A stretch of DNA of 6,504 nt from Microcaldota archaeon (GTDB taxonomy: Archaea; Micrarchaeota; Micrarchaeia; Norongarragalinales; UBA10210). Shown here one piece after another: positions 2,563 through 6,455 of the stretch. The DNA lies in the NCBI GenBank assembly GCA_013331595.1, contig DUGE01000101.1, positions 21,862 through 28,365 on the forward strand. Direction: 5' to 3'. Position numbers and translations under genes: made by a program. Position 1 is the stretch's first letter; every line of letters begins with the position of its first letter. The notes under the pieces were generated by a model that ran no database searches, was not told the DNA's origin, and was given only the letters and a program-made list of their open reading frames with translations.

Positions 2563-2976
2563 TTAATCTGCTTCTTTTAGTTGATCTAGAATTTTTCCAG
2601 GATTCATTATCTTGATTCCTTGAAACTCTTCAATATTTGTCAAATGCGGATCCCAAGACGCCAAGAAATCTGCCTTAATGTAAACAGCACACTCAACAAT
2701 GCTGTTGTCTTCATCATCTTCTTTTACGGCGTTAAGCTTGATGTCGGGCTCTACAAGTTTCAAGAACTGCAAAAACACTTCGACCATTTGCTCTGCTCGC
2801 TCTAGCGGAACCTGAAAGTCTCGCTGTATCACTTCCTTAAATTTTATCAAAATCTCTTTTGAAGTGTAGCCGATTATTTTGCCCTCTGTGAACAAGTGAA
2901 TTAATTGGTAAGACATGCCTTTTTCAGATAAGACGGCTGCTATCAAGACGTTTATGTCGGGCACGACTTTTATCAT
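2563..2976 (-). CDS. vapC: PIN-domain toxin, VapC-like ribonuclease
   Basis: A 137-aa PIN domain, the Mg-dependent RNase fold of type II VapC toxins. The four acidic positions are visible: D7 in VVPDINVLI, E41 in SKEIL, D90 (or D88) in DDEDNSIVECA, and D109 in SWDPHL, followed by the usual C-terminal GIKIMNPGKIL strand-helix. Length is normal and the active site looks complete, so the protein should be functional. The ATG at 2976 lies 7 nt after the antitoxin stop, and GAAGTGA in the antitoxin's last codons can act as its ribosome-binding site. The target is not deducible; characterised VapC enzymes cut tRNAs or rRNA. It belongs with the AbrB-type antitoxin directly upstream and is convergent with the helicase, with no room for separate regulation between the two stops. 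Confidence 0.88.
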   Translation of the reverse strand: MIKVVPDINVLIAAVLSEKGMSYQLIHLFTEGKIIGYTSKEILIKFKEVIQRDFQVPLERAEQMVEVFLQFLKLVEPDIKLNAVKEDDEDNSIVECAVYIKADFLASWDPHLTNIEEFQGIKIMNPGKILDQLKEAD

Positions 2977-2983
2977 TTAATTT

Positions 2984-3259
2984 TCACTTCTTGTGCTGCT
3001 TTTCGACTATCTTTTCCGGGCGAACATCCAAACCCAAAGATTTAGCGTGCTGTCTGCCCCACTTTGCCATTTCTTCAAAAGCTTTGGTAGGTTCAGGAAC
3101 GACGAGTCTCTTCAATAGTATTGAATCCGCGTTTTTATTGCCGAAAACAACGAAAGTTGAACCGGCATGCAAATTCATGTCCTCTCGAATGTCCTCCGGA
3201 ATAACCACTTGTCCTTTTGAAGACATTTTAGCTACCTGTGCTTCTACTTCACTAGCCAT
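2984..3259 (-). CDS. vapB: AbrB/MazE/SpoVT-type antitoxin, VapB-like
   Basis: About 91 residues. The N-terminal swapped-hairpin DNA-binding domain is marked by SSKGQVVIPEDIRE (13-26) and a following AGSTFVVFG strand. The C-terminal half (PTKAFEEMAKWGRQHAKSLG and onward) is helical and basic and probably wraps the toxin. It should neutralise the PIN toxin encoded 7 nt downstream and repress its own promoter as a complex. The ATG at 3259 is preferred to the GTG at 3268 because GAGGGGTGA (3273-3265) makes a good ribosome-binding site 5 nt before the ATG; the GTG would lie inside that site. The C-terminal half is similar in pattern to the second antitoxin at 6207 (aromatic/hydrophobic-E-x-hydrophobic-A-x-x-GR), so the two are probably paralogues. 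Confidence 0.88.
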   Translation of the reverse strand: MASEVEAQVAKMSSKGQVVIPEDIREDMNLHAGSTFVVFGNKNADSILLKRLVVPEPTKAFEEMAKWGRQHAKSLGLDVRPEKIVEKQHKK

Positions 3260-3283
3260 ACGAGTCACCCCTCGATACTAATT

Positions 3284-3364: not shown

Positions 3365-3488
3365 CGCCTTGGCCGGGATTCGAACCCGGGTCTCCAACGT
3401 GACAGGCTGGAATGCTAGACCACTACAATTGGCAACTTTTTCTTTCGGCTGAGCTTTGCTTCTCAAAAGAAAGAGTTTCTACCAAGGC
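3365..3488 (-). tRNA. tRNA-Asp(GTC) with a non-canonical D-stem intron
   Basis: Exon 1 is only GCCTTGGTAG (3488-3479): the acceptor strand plus positions 8-10. Exon 2 starts TGTAGTGG at 3427 and runs to 3365. The spliced molecule has a 7-bp acceptor stem (GCCTTGG/CCAAGGC), D stem GTGT/GCAT, D loop with GG, anticodon stem CCAGC/GTTGG, loop CTGTCAC with anticodon GTC, T arm CCGGG-TTCGAAT-CCCGG, and discriminator G73, as expected for archaeal tRNA-Asp; the mature length is 73 nt. CCA is not encoded (CTC follows). A TATA-like AAAAATA lies 19-27 nt upstream (3515-3507). The interrupted D arm would make a standard covariance search miss or truncate this gene. Assignment is confident because every stem closes after intron removal. 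Confidence 0.9.
3428..3478 (-). other. 51-nt intron in tRNA-Asp between positions 10 and 11, bulge-helix-bulge type
   Basis: With cuts after G3479 and after T3428 the classical geometry appears. The central 4-bp helix is TGGT (3484-3481) with GCCA (3433-3430). The bulges are AG^A (3480-3478) and AT^T (3429-3427), each cut after the second base. The inner helix is a 14-position stem (3477-3464 with 3447-3434) with a single C-A mismatch. The outer helix is weak, as in relaxed archaeal tRNA-intron motifs. Excision restores a proper D stem. The stem contains the CTTTCTTTT nonamer (3473-3465) also found in the other two introns. Confidence 0.8.
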
Positions 3489-3506
3489 AGTCTAGGCGCT
3501 GGAAAG

Positions 3507-3531
3507 TATTTTTTTCTCAACTCTTTTAAGG
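3507..3531. promoter_or_regulatory. Divergent promoter region between tRNA-Asp and the 210-aa protein gene
   Basis: On the minus strand AAAAATA-like sequence (3515-3507) is placed for tRNA-Asp. On the plus strand TTTTAAGG (3524-3531) is centred about 27 nt before the ATG at 3554, predicting a leaderless message; no ribosome-binding site is present before that ATG. Confidence 0.5.
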
Positions 3532-3553
3532 CTTGCGAAAACAATATTTATTC

Positions 3554-4186
3554 ATGTCTCTCCCGCGCGAAATCACTGAGCTTCGAAAACGGATTCTTGG
3601 TAAGGCCGTAGAACTCAATGTGCGTTGGCCGATACCTAAGATTACGGAAGGCTCGTCAGAAGGAAAGGGCACAGCAGTTACTGGCGGAATACAACGAGAT
3701 GCTTATCTTAATCTAGTTCATTCGACTAAGCCCGCCGATAAAATCTGGCGGTATAATGCGCTTCAGCATAAGGAACTCGGGGCGTATATCGTTGATGAAA
3801 TGCTAAAACTGGTTCCGGCTAGCACAGCTGATGTTGAAACTAAGGCTTTAGCTAGAGCCGTTTACAATAAAATGCATGAGGATGAAGTGCCGCCTTTTGG
3901 CGTGTATCAACGTAATTTGATTGTTTTGCCAGGAAAGGAAACCGGACTGTTTATTGGAAAGTGGGGAATGTTAAGTTTCAAGCAGCGCAGGAAAGCTATC
4001 GCTTTAGTGAATACGGTTAGCCGAATATTGGTTGACTTGAAGGTTAGCATTGATAACAAGGTGGCTGAAGAAAATCAAATTGCTGCCGAGCAGCGTTTTC
4101 ATTTGACTATTTACGCCGTTCACAATTTGAGAGATTTGAATTACAAACTTTGTCAAAAACTTGGGATTTATTCTAAAGCTACTTAA
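3554..4186 (+). CDS. Hypothetical protein of about 210 aa between two intron-bearing tRNA genes
   Basis: I do not recognise this protein. It is soluble, with no signal peptide or membrane segment, and looks largely alpha-helical. Lys/Arg-rich stretches include ITELRKRILGK near the N-terminus and LSFKQRRKAIALVN in the middle. A central GVYQRNLIVLPGKETGLFIG segment is the only obvious strand-rich part. No known catalytic motif or cysteine pair is evident. The ATG at 3554 is preferred to a TTG at 3533 because of the TATA-like box about 27 nt upstream. Synonymous choices are visibly more A/T-ending than in the helicase or the surface protein gene, which may reflect later arrival; tRNA loci are common integration sites, but I found no integrase or attachment repeat. 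It ends 18 nt from the convergent tRNA-Tyr. That it is a gene is likely; function unknown. Confidence 0.65.
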   Translation: MSLPREITELRKRILGKAVELNVRWPIPKITEGSSEGKGTAVTGGIQRDAYLNLVHSTKPADKIWRYNALQHKELGAYIVDEMLKLVPASTADVETKALARAVYNKMHEDEVPPFGVYQRNLIVLPGKETGLFIGKWGMLSFKQRRKAIALVNTVSRILVDLKVSIDNKVAEENQIAAEQRFHLTIYAVHNLRDLNYKLCQKLGIYSKAT

Positions 4187-4204
4187 ACTTCATTGAGTGT
4201 AAAG

Positions 4205-4348
4205 TCCCGCGGGCCAGATTTGAACTGGCAACCCTCTGATTTCAGCAAAGCAATTTTTCTTTCTTTAGTTGAGTTTTCTTTCTTTTCGCAAAAGAAAGAA
4301 AAGTCACAGGCTACAGTCAGATGCTCTGCCAAATTGAGCTACCGCGGG
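4205..4348 (-). tRNA. tRNA-Tyr(GTA) with intron after position 37
   Basis: Exon 1 (4348-4311) and exon 2 (4240-4205) join to a 74-nt tRNA. It has acceptor CCCGCGG/CCGCGGG with C1:G72 and A73 (archaeal/eukaryotic Tyr identity), D stem GCTC/GAGC with GG in the loop, anticodon stem TCTGA/TCAGA, loop CTGTAGA with anticodon GTA, and T arm GCCAG-TTCAAAT-CTGGC. The intron is at the canonical 37/38 site. CCA is not encoded (CTT follows). The minus-strand TTAAAAGG at about 4384-4377 lies 29-36 nt upstream and could be its TATA box, shared in reverse by the surface protein gene. Confidence 0.93.
4241..4310 (-). other. 70-nt intron of tRNA-Tyr with a perfect 13-bp hairpin and a repeated arm
   Basis: TTTTCTTTCTTTT (4274-4286) and AAAAGAAAGAAAA (4290-4302) pair perfectly across a 3-nt loop. 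A second copy of the pyrimidine arm (4254-4266) lies 20 nt away on the plus strand, so on the transcript one T/C-rich arm could pair with either of two A/G-rich arms. The splice motif is imperfect: CTGT (32-35) opposite GCTG gives three of four pairs with a U-U mismatch, followed by an AA^A bulge next to the anticodon stem. Confidence 0.75.
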
Positions 4349-4376
4349 ACCGTAAATTAAAAGGGAAATGAGAACC

Positions 4377-4384
4377 TTTTAATT
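4377..4384 (+). promoter_or_regulatory. TATA-like box of the surface protein gene
   Basis: TTTTAATT is centred about 26 nt before the ATG at 4407, which predicts a leaderless message and favours that ATG over the TTG at 4383. A second A/T box (TAAATTAAAA, 4353-4362) lies upstream. The near-symmetric core could serve tRNA-Tyr in the other direction. Confidence 0.45.
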
Positions 4385-4406
4385 GCTTGTTGCGTTTATT
4401 AAAAGT

Positions 4407-5867
4407 ATGCCCACTAGTGTTAAAAAAATAACCGTTTACCTGCTTTTGGCTTTGGCCTTGTCATCGGCTGGCGTTTTTGCCTTGACTGTGCAAGAGCAGG
4501 CTAATTTCTTTGTGAACAGCGGGGAAACCGCATCCGCTGTCCAGGCGGGCGCCTATTACGTTGTTTTGGTTAATGGTGTTGAAACTGCCGTGTTGAAGCC
4601 GGTTGGTAATGATTTCACCATAGTGCAAAGCCAAGGCGAGTTTACCGTAGCAGTACAGGCGTATTCCCAAAACGTTTTCCAGAATGACTTGAAGCCCGCA
4701 GTGCCCGGCATAGAATCGACTTTCGATTCGCTCAAGGGCATTGTTGACACTTGCCTCAAGGGCTCGAAGTGGTTTTCTTTCAACGCCACGCGCGGCGGCG
4801 TGTACGTAGCGTATAACGTGCGCTACGACCCGTTCCACTGGCCGAAAGAATGGGGCGCAATCCACTACATTGAAGACAACGTCTATGCTTTCGAAGACTC
4901 TTGGAACTCGGCCAAGGCCGGAATGGAGTCCCTAGCCTCTTCGCTTTCCGATGCCGAAGTTGCTTTGGCAGCTACGGCCAACGCCCGCGAGGGGTTGAAG
5001 CCCATTCGCGCGCAATACCCCAAGTACTACGAGGCTTTCTTGAATGCGACTAGCAGCAACCAGTACGCTTACAGCATTCAGGCAAAGCCCTACCCTTGCG
5101 CTCCAGATTCCGAAGTTTCGGGAAAAATAGACTCGATTTTGAGCGCAATCGGTGCAAGCAAGTTTAATCCGCCTTCGTACTTGGTTTCCCTGATTTCCAA
5201 CAAAACTGCCGAGAGGTTCGGCCAGGCAACGCAAACAAAGCAGAATGCCACCCAAAGCATCAGGGCTTCAGAGCTAGTGCAATCTGCGCAAACCCTGAAT
5301 GCAAACTTTTCATCCTTGGGAGTGACGCTCGACAAGTTCCAGAGCGACTTGACCGACTTGCAGAATTCGGTCGGGACGAATTCCTTCGAAAACCAGACTG
5401 CCGTTTTCTCGGCGCGCCTTGAAAAATACCAGGGCCTCTACGTGCAATATAACGCCACGCTATTTTCCCTCAACCGCGCCCAGGGCGCCTTGACCAACGC
5501 TTCAAACCGCTACGGCGGCAGTGACGACCGGGTTTCAGACCTGAAAAGACGCCTTGACCAGGCTAATGTGGAATTGAGGGAAAGCCAGAGCCTCCTGAAA
5601 ACAGGAAAGCTTGAAGTGCTAAACCTGCCAGGATTGAATGAAAACGCAACTTCGATTGCAGTTACGGCGGAAAACCTCCAGCCTAAAGAAAACCAGTTTG
5701 ACCTCGTAACCATCGGCGTGGTCATACTAGTTCTTGCTTTGCTCGTGGGCGGATTCCTATACCTCCGCAAGCGCCAGCCTCCCCAGGCGGAAAGGCCCCG
5801 CATTTTCGGCGGCAATAGTGATGAAATAGAGCAAATGGATTTTGGAAGCGAAAACCCCCGCGGCTAA
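4407..5867 (+). CDS. Secreted, C-terminally membrane-anchored surface protein with coiled-coil-like stalk
   Basis: No named family is recognised; the architecture is clear. Of 486 residues, 1-25 form a signal peptide (KK, then YLLLALALSSAG, with cleavage likely after VFA). Residues ~26-110 look beta-rich (AYYVVLVNGVETAVLKP). A middle region holds the only two cysteines, C116 and C231, which may form a disulfide. Residues ~240-425 are polar, Gln/Asn/Ser-rich and heptad-like, including DRVSDLKRRLDQANVELRES, probably a coiled-coil stalk. One transmembrane helix (~433-453, TIGVVILVLALLVGGFLYL) is followed by RKR and an acidic 33-residue cytoplasmic tail. Nine N-x-S/T sequons lie in the exterior part, consistent with archaeal N-glycosylation. 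This is a type I topology. It could be an S-layer-associated or adhesion protein; that is inference. The start at 4407 leaves a compact signal peptide and fits the promoter. Confidence 0.82.
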   Translation: MPTSVKKITVYLLLALALSSAGVFALTVQEQANFFVNSGETASAVQAGAYYVVLVNGVETAVLKPVGNDFTIVQSQGEFTVAVQAYSQNVFQNDLKPAVPGIESTFDSLKGIVDTCLKGSKWFSFNATRGGVYVAYNVRYDPFHWPKEWGAIHYIEDNVYAFEDSWNSAKAGMESLASSLSDAEVALAATANAREGLKPIRAQYPKYYEAFLNATSSNQYAYSIQAKPYPCAPDSEVSGKIDSILSAIGASKFNPPSYLVSLISNKTAERFGQATQTKQNATQSIRASELVQSAQTLNANFSSLGVTLDKFQSDLTDLQNSVGTNSFENQTAVFSARLEKYQGLYVQYNATLFSLNRAQGALTNASNRYGGSDDRVSDLKRRLDQANVELRESQSLLKTGKLEVLNLPGLNENATSIAVTAENLQPKENQFDLVTIGVVILVLALLVGGFLYLRKRQPPQAERPRIFGGNSDEIEQMDFGSENPRG

Positions 5868-5873
5868 AAATCA

Positions 5874-5879
5874 TTTTTT
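5874..5879 (+). terminator. T6 tract after the surface protein gene
   Basis: A run of six Ts begins 7 nt after the stop codon, suited to archaeal oligo-T termination ahead of the tRNA-Pro promoter. Confidence 0.45.
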
Positions 5880-5900
5880 CCCATTTCGGCAAAAGTAAAC

Positions 5901-5911
5901 CTATTTTATTT
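5901..5911 (+). promoter_or_regulatory. TATA-like box of tRNA-Pro
   Basis: CTATTTTATTT lies 26-36 nt before the mature 5' end of the tRNA, predicting transcription from about 5930 with a very short leader. Confidence 0.5.
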
Positions 5912-5936
5912 CCCCTACAGCCAAACTATTATTCAC

Positions 5937-6129
5937 GGGGGATTGGGGTAGCCTGGTATCCTGCCAGCTTTGGGTTGACATCCCTTTCTTTTTGCGAAAA
6001 GAAAGGTCCGTCACCCCCAAAGAAAACTTTGGGGGCCTGCAGCATTCAAGAAGAGTTTTAGGAATAATTTTCTTTCGAGTGCAACAGGAAAAACAGTTGG
6101 CGACCTGAGTTCAAATCTCAGATCCCCCA
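5937..6129 (+). tRNA. tRNA-Pro(TGG) with a 120-nt intron after position 37
   Basis: Exon 1 (5937-5974) and exon 2 (6095-6129) give a 73-nt tRNA. Its parts are acceptor GGGGGAT/ATCCCCC with G1:C72 and A73, the D arm GGGT-AGCCTGGTA-TCCT that is characteristic of archaeal tRNA-Pro, anticodon stem CCAGC/GTTGG, loop TTTGGGA with anticodon TGG, and T arm CTGAG-TTCAAAT-CTCAG. CCA is not encoded (TTG follows). Shifting the anticodon stem by one base would read TTG (Gln), but that breaks the conserved A21, and G1:C72 fits Pro rather than Gln. The intron makes up well over half of the gene. Confidence 0.9.
5975..6094 (+). other. 120-nt intron of tRNA-Pro with two perfect hairpins
   Basis: Hairpin A: CCTTTCTTTT (5983-5992) with AAAAGAAAGG (5997-6006), 10 bp around a TGCG loop. 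Hairpin B: CCCCCAAAG (6014-6022) with CTTTGGGGG (6027-6035), 9 bp around AAAA. The remaining 59 nt are A-rich and less structured. Hairpin A is nearly the same as that in the tRNA-Tyr intron. The expected splice helix is weak: TTTG (32-35) opposite AAAA gives three of four pairs, so the exact 3' cut is less certain than in tRNA-Asp. Confidence 0.7.
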
Positions 6130-6206: not shown

Positions 6207-6455
6207 ATGATTGGGAAGCAAGTTCAAGTTACGACAACCTCGCCTAAGGGGCAGGTAGTAATTCCACAGGAAATTAGGGAAGCTTTGGGTATAGAATCCG
6301 GCACTAAATTCGCGGTTTACGGAAAAGGGGATACTGTAATTTTCAAGCGCATTGAAGTTCCGTCCGTGAAGGACTTTGAGAAATTGGCCGGTTTCGGCAG
6401 GAAATTTGCCAAAAAGAAGGGCATTACAGAGAAAGACGTTATTAGTGATGATTAG
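6207..6455 (+). CDS. vapB: AbrB/MazE/SpoVT-type antitoxin, second VapB-like copy
   Basis: An 82-aa protein with the AbrB-type DNA-binding signature SPKGQVVIPQEIREALGI (12-29) and strand SGTKFAVYGKGDTVIFKR. A basic C-terminal helix region (DFEKLAGFGRKFAKKKGI) presumably binds a PIN toxin. It resembles the antitoxin at 2984-3259 in both halves and is likely a paralogue. Its last codons overlap by 8 nt the ATG at 6448 that begins a PIN-like peptide. Autorepression through the inverted repeat at 6180-6196 is expected for this family. The ATG at 6207 fits a promoter box about 34-43 nt upstream with a short leader. It follows tRNA-Pro on the same strand but has its own promoter. Confidence 0.88.
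   Translation: MIGKQVQVTTTSPKGQVVIPQEIREALGIESGTKFAVYGKGDTVIFKRIEVPSVKDFEKLAGFGRKFAKKKGITEKDVISDD

What the first reader, a model, noticed from the sequence alone, without database searches (positions are those of the whole stretch)
3428..6094. The same palindromic element sits inside introns of three unrelated tRNA genes
The introns of tRNA-Asp, tRNA-Tyr and tRNA-Pro all contain CTTTCTTTT in the sense orientation (3473-3465 minus, 4298-4290 minus, 5984-5992 plus), each time as the 5' arm of a hairpin with an A/G-rich 3' arm. In Tyr and Pro the 3' arm AAAAGAAAG and a GCG-containing loop are also shared, while the sequence around them and the tRNAs themselves differ. Asp differs in its loop. 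Shared ancestry of non-homologous introns suggests a small element that spreads into or between tRNA introns, or a conserved structure needed for processing. Low complexity of T/C and A/G tracts could explain part of the likeness, but not the shared loop and orientation.
Basis: partly seen in the sequence, partly recalled or inferred. Interest (0 to 1): 0.8.

Follow-up and report, generated by a model that had tools for sequence, protein, structure and literature searches.

The report
Triplex-type DNA repeats inside tRNA introns
In some tiny archaea, a short repeated DNA element laid out to fold into three strands keeps turning up inside and beside tRNA genes, where it may be a source of their introns.

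Summary
The hairpins are real in tRNA-Tyr and tRNA-Pro; the tRNA-Asp intron shares only the 5' arm and a later purine block. They are the visible half of a larger repeat: pyrimidine arm, variable loop, purine arm R1, short spacer S2, third purine block R2. Of 301 genomes of a relative's phylum (relative recorded as Micrarchaeota), 41 hold the exact composite (131 matches; reversed control 0; 36 bacterial genomes 0). R2 is the mirror of R1: 25 of 30 and 17 of 18 hairpins chosen without regard to R2, direct repeat alone 0 in both. That is the layout of class II intrastrand triplex motifs, a known repeat kind of unknown function. The Tyr core (53 nt) is 96% identical to an insert in a relative's tRNA-Val D arm; the Pro core matches a T-loop insert of tRNA-Asp at 48/52. 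Other copies lie 3-10 nt from tRNA ends or outside tRNA genes; 10 of 86 have 16-71-nt flanking duplications. Best reading: a small mobile non-coding repeat favouring tRNA genes, surviving there as spliceable introns. The shared GCG loop is coincidence. Mobility, splicing and triplex folding are inferred; no mobilising enzyme was found.

The parts
4205..4348 (-). tRNA-Tyr (GTA) gene with anticodon-loop intron
   Evidence: Rfam RF00005, 53.5 bits; cloverleaf restored on removal of the intron
4241..4310 (-). Tyr intron, 70 nt
   Evidence: best-scoring cut
4290..4298 (-). Tyr Y1, CTTTCTTTT
4278..4286 (-). Tyr R1, AAAAGAAAG (loop GCG at 4287-4289)
   Evidence: and sequence
4254..4266 (-). Tyr third purine block R2, AAAGAAAGAAAAA
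   Evidence: composite match 4298-4260; 53-nt core 96% identical to a tRNA-Val insert in G001
5937..6129 (+). tRNA-Pro (TGG) gene with anticodon-loop intron
   Evidence: cloverleaf restored on removal of the intron; not found by Rfam or ARAGORN on the intact window
5975..6094 (+). Pro intron, about 120 nt (ends uncertain by 1-2 nt)
5984..5992 (+). Pro Y1, CTTTCTTTT
5997..6005 (+). Pro R1, AAAAGAAAG (loop TGCG at 5993-5996)
6006..6018 (+). Pro spacer S2, GTCCGTCACCCCC, identical to three G021 copies
   Evidence: L187, L188, L191
6019..6026 (+). Pro third purine block R2, AAAGAAAA, mirror of R1
   Evidence: composite match; core matches L191 44/45 and L188 48/52
3365..3488 (-). tRNA-Asp (GTC) gene with a non-canonical D-arm intron
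   Evidence: RF00005 on 3365-3433; mature form lined up by eye with the G021 tRNA-Asp
3428..3478 (-). Asp intron, 51 nt, between nt 10 and 11; CTTTCTTTT at 3473-3465 and GAAAGAAAAAG at 3446-3436 without a proper R1
   Evidence: sequence, fold, alternative cuts; membership in the family not shown

Best explanation
The hairpin is the core of a short, non-coding, probably mobile DNA repeat. Its order is left end (5-11 nt), Y1, variable loop, R1, S2, R2, then 0-42 nt to the right end. Shown by sequence: the repeat recurs at separate places within one genome, R2 is the mirror image of R1 as in a class II (purine-motif) intrastrand triplex, it is concentrated in and beside tRNA genes, and cutting it out restores clean tRNAs in a number of cases. 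Inferred: the three blocks fold as a triplex in single-stranded DNA during replication or transcription. That structure promotes copying of the repeat into new sites, with tRNA T loops, anticodon loops, D arms and 3' ends favoured. Copies inside tRNA genes survive because their ends pair with the exon and the splicing endonuclease removes them, so an insertion becomes an intron.
For: Recurrence: the composite is in 41 of 301 phylum genomes, 131 matches summed over the table, reversed control 0; 0 of 36 bacterial genomes. Mirror rule on loci fetched by hairpin alone: 25 of 30 with mirror block (19 mirror only, 6 both, 0 direct only, 5 none), and for the other arm class 17 of 18 (14 mirror only, 0 direct only, 1 none). 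Over all purine hairpins in held loci: 297 strand views with asymmetric R1, mirror 125, mirror only 79, direct only 2, shuffled 43 (most of those loci were fetched with the mirror in the pattern). Same core at different sites: Tyr versus tRNA-Val D arm 51/53; Pro versus tRNA-Asp T loop 48/52, versus a contig-end copy 44/45, and versus a copy behind tRNA-His 43/46. Location among 114 pattern matches: 16 inside an ARAGORN intron and 17 within 3-10 nt of a tRNA end, 33 together; removal restores a cloverleaf with the junction well inside in 32 (swapped-flank control 8, 11, 9). Duplications: 10 of 86 loci have 16-71-nt direct repeats starting 5-11 nt left of Y1 and 0-42 nt right of R2. Splicing endonuclease domain in 22 of 24 genomes, in 14 with two matches in one 310-442-aa frame.
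Against: No mobilising enzyme found: Y1 transposase in 10 of 41 composite-bearing genomes against 100 of the other 260; reverse transcriptase in 0 of 15 element-rich genomes. 260 of 301 phylum genomes lack the exact composite. About half of the 114 matches were not placed in or beside a tRNA by the automatic tests, even by a generous union (64 of 114, which counts a T-loop motif whose control windows score 19, 6, 3 and 18 against 25). 76 of 86 loci show no such flanking duplication. S2 is well conserved within some genomes (G104 1.00, G012 0.80) but not in others that mix subfamilies (G001 0.34, G009 0.38; between genomes 0.39). The Asp intron has no clear relative. No expression, splicing or structural data exist here.
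Confidence: 0.72

Rival explanations
1. Intron transposition at the RNA level, as proposed for Thermoproteales: excised introns reverse-splice into other tRNAs at sites that can form a bulge-helix-bulge motif and are then copied into DNA. The triplex layout would be a passenger.
For: Related cores in different tRNAs and positions. T-loop inserts end in sequence complementary to the conserved TTCAA or TTCGA of the T loop (read), which would allow the same junction in many tRNAs. Large-scale intron transposition is described for Thermoproteales (passages of PMC4033280 and PMC4090602).
Against: Copies outside tRNA genes and inverted copies inside introns (L197, L198, L074). No RVT_1 reverse transcriptase in 15 element-rich genomes. 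A mirror-image purine block has no obvious RNA use, and PMC4666352 states that purine-motif triplexes cannot form in RNA.
Confidence: 0.15
2. A conserved RNA hairpin that helps tRNA introns fold or be cut, kept by selection rather than by spreading.
For: Y1 and R1 form a stable stem in predicted RNA folds of the Tyr and Pro precursors, and many copies are in introns.
Against: Copies 3-10 nt outside tRNA ends (17 of 114), beside other genes, and inverted in introns. The third block does not follow Watson-Crick logic. S2 matches between unrelated tRNAs.
Confidence: 0.06
3. A transcription terminator: T-rich arms just behind tRNA genes stop RNA polymerase, and the intron copies are chance.
For: 15 of the 17 copies close to a tRNA end lie behind its 3' end on the same strand, with the T-rich arm first.
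Against: It would stop transcription inside tRNA genes. E. coli triplex (PIT) elements showed no terminator activity (PMC4666352 citing earlier work). The mirror third block is unexplained.
Confidence: 0.04
4. Chance likeness of low-complexity T/C and A/G tracts.
For: The arms are low in complexity, and the Asp likeness may be of this kind.
Against: Shuffles, reversed-pattern controls of 3 of 301 genomes for the hairpin, 0 of 301 for the composite and 1 of 301 for the other arm class, and 45-53-nt near-identities.
Confidence: 0.03

Closest known systems
Class II intrastrand triplex motifs: PIT elements, BoxC, TM_ECO (Holder et al. 2015, PMC4666352; abstract, section 3 part 1, sections 15 and 16, section 20 part 1 and passages read)
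   Same: Order pyrimidine arm, loop 1, purine arm, loop 2, purine third strand; 9-nt blocks; many copies per genome; unknown function.
   Different: A/T-rich rather than G/C-rich; loop 2 is mostly 11-18 nt, often self-complementary, instead of 3 nt; found in tRNA introns and at tRNA ends, whereas that paper's main text has no occurrence of 'tRNA' or 'intron'.
Transposed tRNA introns of Thermoproteales (Fujishima et al. 2010, seen only through passages of PMC4033280 and PMC4090602)
   Same: [quoted passage not shown] transposition mechanism said to be unknown.
   Different: Another phylum; here the shared core also exists outside tRNA genes and has a triplex layout. Thermoproteales introns were not compared here.
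Repetitive G-rich sequences of Methanomicrobiaceae that fold into antiparallel triplexes in vitro (PMC8044849, passages read)
   Same: Archaeal multi-copy repeats with an antiparallel purine third strand.
   Different: G/C-rich, opposite strand order, intergenic; no occurrence of 'tRNA' in the paper.
A/T-rich bacterial relatives seen in viral and plasmid records
   Same: Same arms and mirror third block; several copies per replicon (18 places in Caballeronia sp. NK8, 7 in Ilyobacter polytropus).
   Different: S2 only about 4-6 nt in many of the viral matches; no annotated feature under the 9 listed plasmid matches.

Membership tests
Class II intrastrand triplex motif | 5' pyrimidine block, purine block, purine third-strand block on one strand | tested here: met
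Class II intrastrand triplex motif | Third block is the mirror (antiparallel) copy of the duplex purine block | tested here: met
   25 of 30 and 17 of 18 hairpin-only loci, direct-only 0
Class II intrastrand triplex motif | Blocks of 6-15 nt and loop 1 of 1-6 nt (ITxF rules) | tested here: met
   9-nt blocks; effective loop 1 of 2-4 nt in the listed copies
   S2 is 7-21 nt, mostly 11-18; so it is a variant of the layout, not a strict ITxF member
Class II intrastrand triplex motif | Forms a triplex in vitro | not testable with these tools
   needs CD, NMR or footprinting
Transposed archaeal tRNA introns | Near-identical introns at different positions of different tRNAs | tested here: met
   Tyr anticodon loop versus Val D arm 51/53; Pro anticodon loop versus Asp T loop 48/52
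Transposed archaeal tRNA introns | Bulge-helix-bulge motif at the exon-intron junctions | tested here: inconclusive
   Best cuts score 3 of 4 central pairs for Tyr and Pro, 4 of 4 for one Asp cut, with several alternatives
IS200/IS605 or REP/RAYT-type element | Y1 transposase partner in the genome | tested here: not met
   10 of 41 composite-bearing genomes versus 100 of the other 260; none in the copy-rich G127, G009, G012, G128, G014, G001, G021
MITE | Target-site duplication of fixed length and terminal inverted repeats | tested here: inconclusive
   Duplications of variable length in 10 of 86 loci; terminal inverted repeats not tested systematically
Retroelement | Reverse transcriptase in the genome | tested here: not met
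   RVT_1 in 0 of 15 element-rich genomes and 1 of 15 others
Described Rfam RNA family | Match of the element itself | tested here: not met
   No family other than tRNA on the window elements (gathering cut-off); in 60 loci the other families listed are rRNA, SRP, a group I intron and plastid UTR models lying on tRNAs, none on the element itself

The most novel reading that the evidence does not exclude
A family of mobile intrastrand-triplex DNA repeats is a main source of tRNA introns in part of the Micrarchaeota. The single-stranded triplex is the form recognised or copied during spread, tRNA genes are the preferred target, and a broad-specificity splicing endonuclease turns each insertion into an intron. 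This would be a concrete route for the birth of archaeal tRNA introns.
Probability: 0.4. Interest if true: 0.9.

Novelty: new variant of a known kind. Interest (0 to 1): 0.75.

Why it matters
How archaeal tRNA genes gain introns is open; one review passage calls the mechanism of intron transposition unknown (PMC4090602). Triplex-type repeats are common in prokaryotes but have no assigned function (PMC4666352). Here the two problems meet. The same repeat core sits inside introns of different tRNAs, at tRNA ends and outside tRNA genes, with a mirror-image third block that ordinary base pairing does not explain. That makes intron birth testable by strain comparison and gives triplex repeats a definite genomic niche.

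Tried and rejected
Alternative Watson-Crick pairing of the third block (a switch hairpin): rejected as the main reading, because R2 is the mirror and not the direct copy of R1. Simple terminator or RNA-processing hairpin: poor fit, see rivals. IS200/IS605-type mobilisation: not supported. Reverse transcription: not supported. Known RNA family: none. Significance of the GCG loop: rejected.

A first script that looked for spliced tRNAs with ARAGORN had a high control (24 of 114) and missed evident T-loop inserts. A looser cloverleaf test gave 46 of 114 against 22-24 in controls, because intact neighbouring tRNAs counted. The stricter version gave 32 against 8-11. One search stopped with a script error after three of four loci. 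The first genome scan, with the 486-aa membrane protein, found no locus. A search for printed sequence strings found only unrelated-looking papers among the 20 listed of 34. Searches joining triplex with tRNA introns, and tRNA introns with Micrarchaeota or DPANN, listed no report of this element (listings only, apart from passages of the papers named in this report); subscription journals are mostly not held.

Full report
Identity of the window. The nearest database proteins to the 486-aa protein at 4407-5864 are from MAGs named Candidatus Micrarchaeota (48%) and Candidatus Norongarragalinales (46%). No whole genome of the window is held. One related locus, L001, belongs to a record named Candidatus Micrarchaeota archaeon. 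It led to genome G001, to 29 genomes of its order and to 301 of its phylum.

The observation. Tyr and Pro have the 9-bp hairpin; Asp does not. Cutting out 70 nt (4310-4241) and about 120 nt (5975-6094) restores tRNA-Tyr and tRNA-Pro. For Asp several cuts work. Alignment by eye with the spliced tRNA-Asp of G021 favours a 51-nt intron (3478-3428) in the D arm, between nt 10 and 11. In 1000 dinucleotide shuffles of the window the hairpin pattern appears 0.001 times on average and the composite never.

The hairpin is part of a composite. The exact hairpin occurs in 41 of 301 phylum genomes, up to 15 per genome; the same pattern read backwards occurs in 3. Reading the loci showed a third purine block downstream. 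The full pattern, Y1, loop, R1, spacer, AAAGAAAA, also occurs in 41 of 301 genomes: 131 matches when I sum the table, with a few places counted twice, and 0 in the reversed control. It is absent from 36 bacterial genomes. In 2.9 million viral contigs it is found in 45 stretches. Many of those have a shorter spacer, and one lies between two tRNA-Ser genes (L278).

The third block is a mirror image. I took 30 loci fetched by the hairpin alone. AAAGAAAA, the mirror of R1, lies within 45 nt in 25 of 30: 19 without the direct repeat AAAAGAAA, 6 with both; 0 have only the direct repeat and 5 have neither. I then took the sister arm class TTTTCTTTC/GAAAGAAAA, present in 35 of 301 genomes with a control in 1. 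Here the mirror predicts a different third block. It is there in 17 of 18 hairpins: 14 mirror only, 0 direct only, 1 neither. A general scan of purine hairpins in the held loci gives mirror 125, direct 48, mirror only 79, direct only 2 and shuffled 43 of 297 strand views. Most of those loci were fetched with a mirror pattern, so the first two tests are the clean ones. A mirror-image third purine strand is the layout of a class II purine-motif intrastrand triplex (PMC4666352). Loop 2 is longer here than that paper's search rule allows. Triplex formation itself was not tested, and the paper says that this type does not form in RNA, which points to a DNA-level role.

Same core, different tRNA sites. 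The Tyr intron core (53 nt) is 51/53 identical to an insert in G001. Its removal restores tRNA-Val (CAC) with the junction in the D arm. The Pro core is 44/45 identical to a copy at a contig end of G021 in a T-loop-like context (read by eye), 48/52 to the insert in the T loop of tRNA-Asp of G021 (L188), shares 30/30 with the T-loop insert of tRNA-Gly (L187), and is 43/46 identical to a copy 8 nt behind tRNA-His in G020 (L185). The tRNA-Asp T loop that is interrupted in G021 is uninterrupted in the window.

Where the copies lie. Of 114 pattern matches in held loci (two loci, L156 and L158, matched by both patterns), ARAGORN places 16 inside a tRNA intron; no control was run for this and some of its isotype labels are wrong. 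Another 17 lie 3-10 nt from a complete tRNA: 15 behind the 3' end on the same strand, 2 before the 5' end on the opposite strand, always with the Y1 side facing the tRNA. Removal restores a cloverleaf with the junction well inside in 32 of 114, against 8, 11 and 9 with swapped right flanks. A generous union reaches 64 of 114; the other 50 were not placed by these tests. Reading by eye, several of the 50 are T-loop inserts in tRNAs with a second intron (such as L293, L294), others follow C/D-box-like RNAs (L131, L218) or protein genes (L230, L234), and some have no evident tRNA. Some copies inside introns are inverted relative to the tRNA (L197, L198, L074).

Flanking duplications. Of 86 loci tested, 17 have a direct repeat between the left and right flanks that scores above 60 shuffles. 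Ten of these have one geometry: the repeat ends 5-11 nt left of Y1 and resumes 0-42 nt right of R2, with lengths of 16-71 nt. The rest have other explanations (L206 is a neighbouring paralogous tRNA gene) or weak scores. This is what an inserted unit of roughly 60-110 bp would leave, but the variable length fits no standard transposase that I know.

Variation. Loop 1 differs between copies of one genome (mean identity 0.21-0.64 in 8 genomes). S2 is identical in all 5 copies of G104 and 0.62-0.80 in G021, G072, G128 and G012, but 0.34-0.50 in G001, G009 and G014, which mix subfamilies; the between-genome mean is 0.39. In G021 the left end changes with S2 (AACAGCC with GTCCGTCACCCCC; GCCATGC with GCCAGGCGTGGCC).

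Machinery. Y1 transposase domains occur in 110 of 301 genomes but only 10 of the 41 with the composite. RVT_1 is absent from 15 element-rich genomes and present in 1 of 15 others. The tRNA endonuclease domain is found in 22 of 24 genomes, and in 14 two matches lie in one 310-442-aa frame. That resembles the three-unit endonuclease of ARMAN archaea, reported to cut non-canonical introns (passage of PMC4033280). The likeness in subunit plan is my inference.

Literature. The known neighbours are class II triplex repeats in bacteria (PMC4666352), archaeal G-rich triplex repeats (PMC8044849, passages) and transposed tRNA introns in Thermoproteales (PMC4033280 and PMC4090602, passages). Asgard genomes rich in non-canonical tRNA introns are also reported (PMC11291895, passages). 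I found no paper joining triplex repeats and tRNA introns; this library lacks most subscription journals.

Conclusion. The best-supported reading is a mobile, triplex-type DNA repeat that settles in tRNA genes and persists there as introns. Mobility, splicing and triplex folding are inferred.

Noticed in passing
window 2563-2976 (-), 2984-3268 (-) and 6207-6455 (+): A PIN_3-domain gene just downstream of a MazE-like (PF04014) antitoxin gene, resembling a toxin-antitoxin pair, and a second MazE-like gene near the tRNA-Pro.
   Followed up: no
window 5968-5974 and 6027-6033: The anticodon-loop sequence CTTTGGG of tRNA-Pro recurs right after R2, like a 7-bp duplication around the element.
   Followed up: partly
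G129 C64:9776-10021 and L212 (G129 C64:9400-10900): A small extra tRNA-endonuclease gene (171-aa frame) ends about 100 bp before an element-bearing tRNA.
   Followed up: no
L241 1271-1497: A group I intron match (RF00028, E 1.1e-15) close to an element-bearing tRNA-Ala.
   Followed up: no
L204 569-1100: An archaeal 16S rRNA match (RF01959), cut at the contig end, overlaps or adjoins the element-bearing tRNA-Ala region on the same contig.
   Followed up: no
L278 5026-5254 (viral contig): A composite element sits between two tRNA-Ser genes of a viral contig.
   Followed up: partly
plasmid records NZ_AP024325.1 and NC_014633.1: A related A/T-rich repeat occurs at 18 places in a Caballeronia replicon and 7 in Ilyobacter polytropus, with no annotated feature under the listed match.
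   Followed up: no
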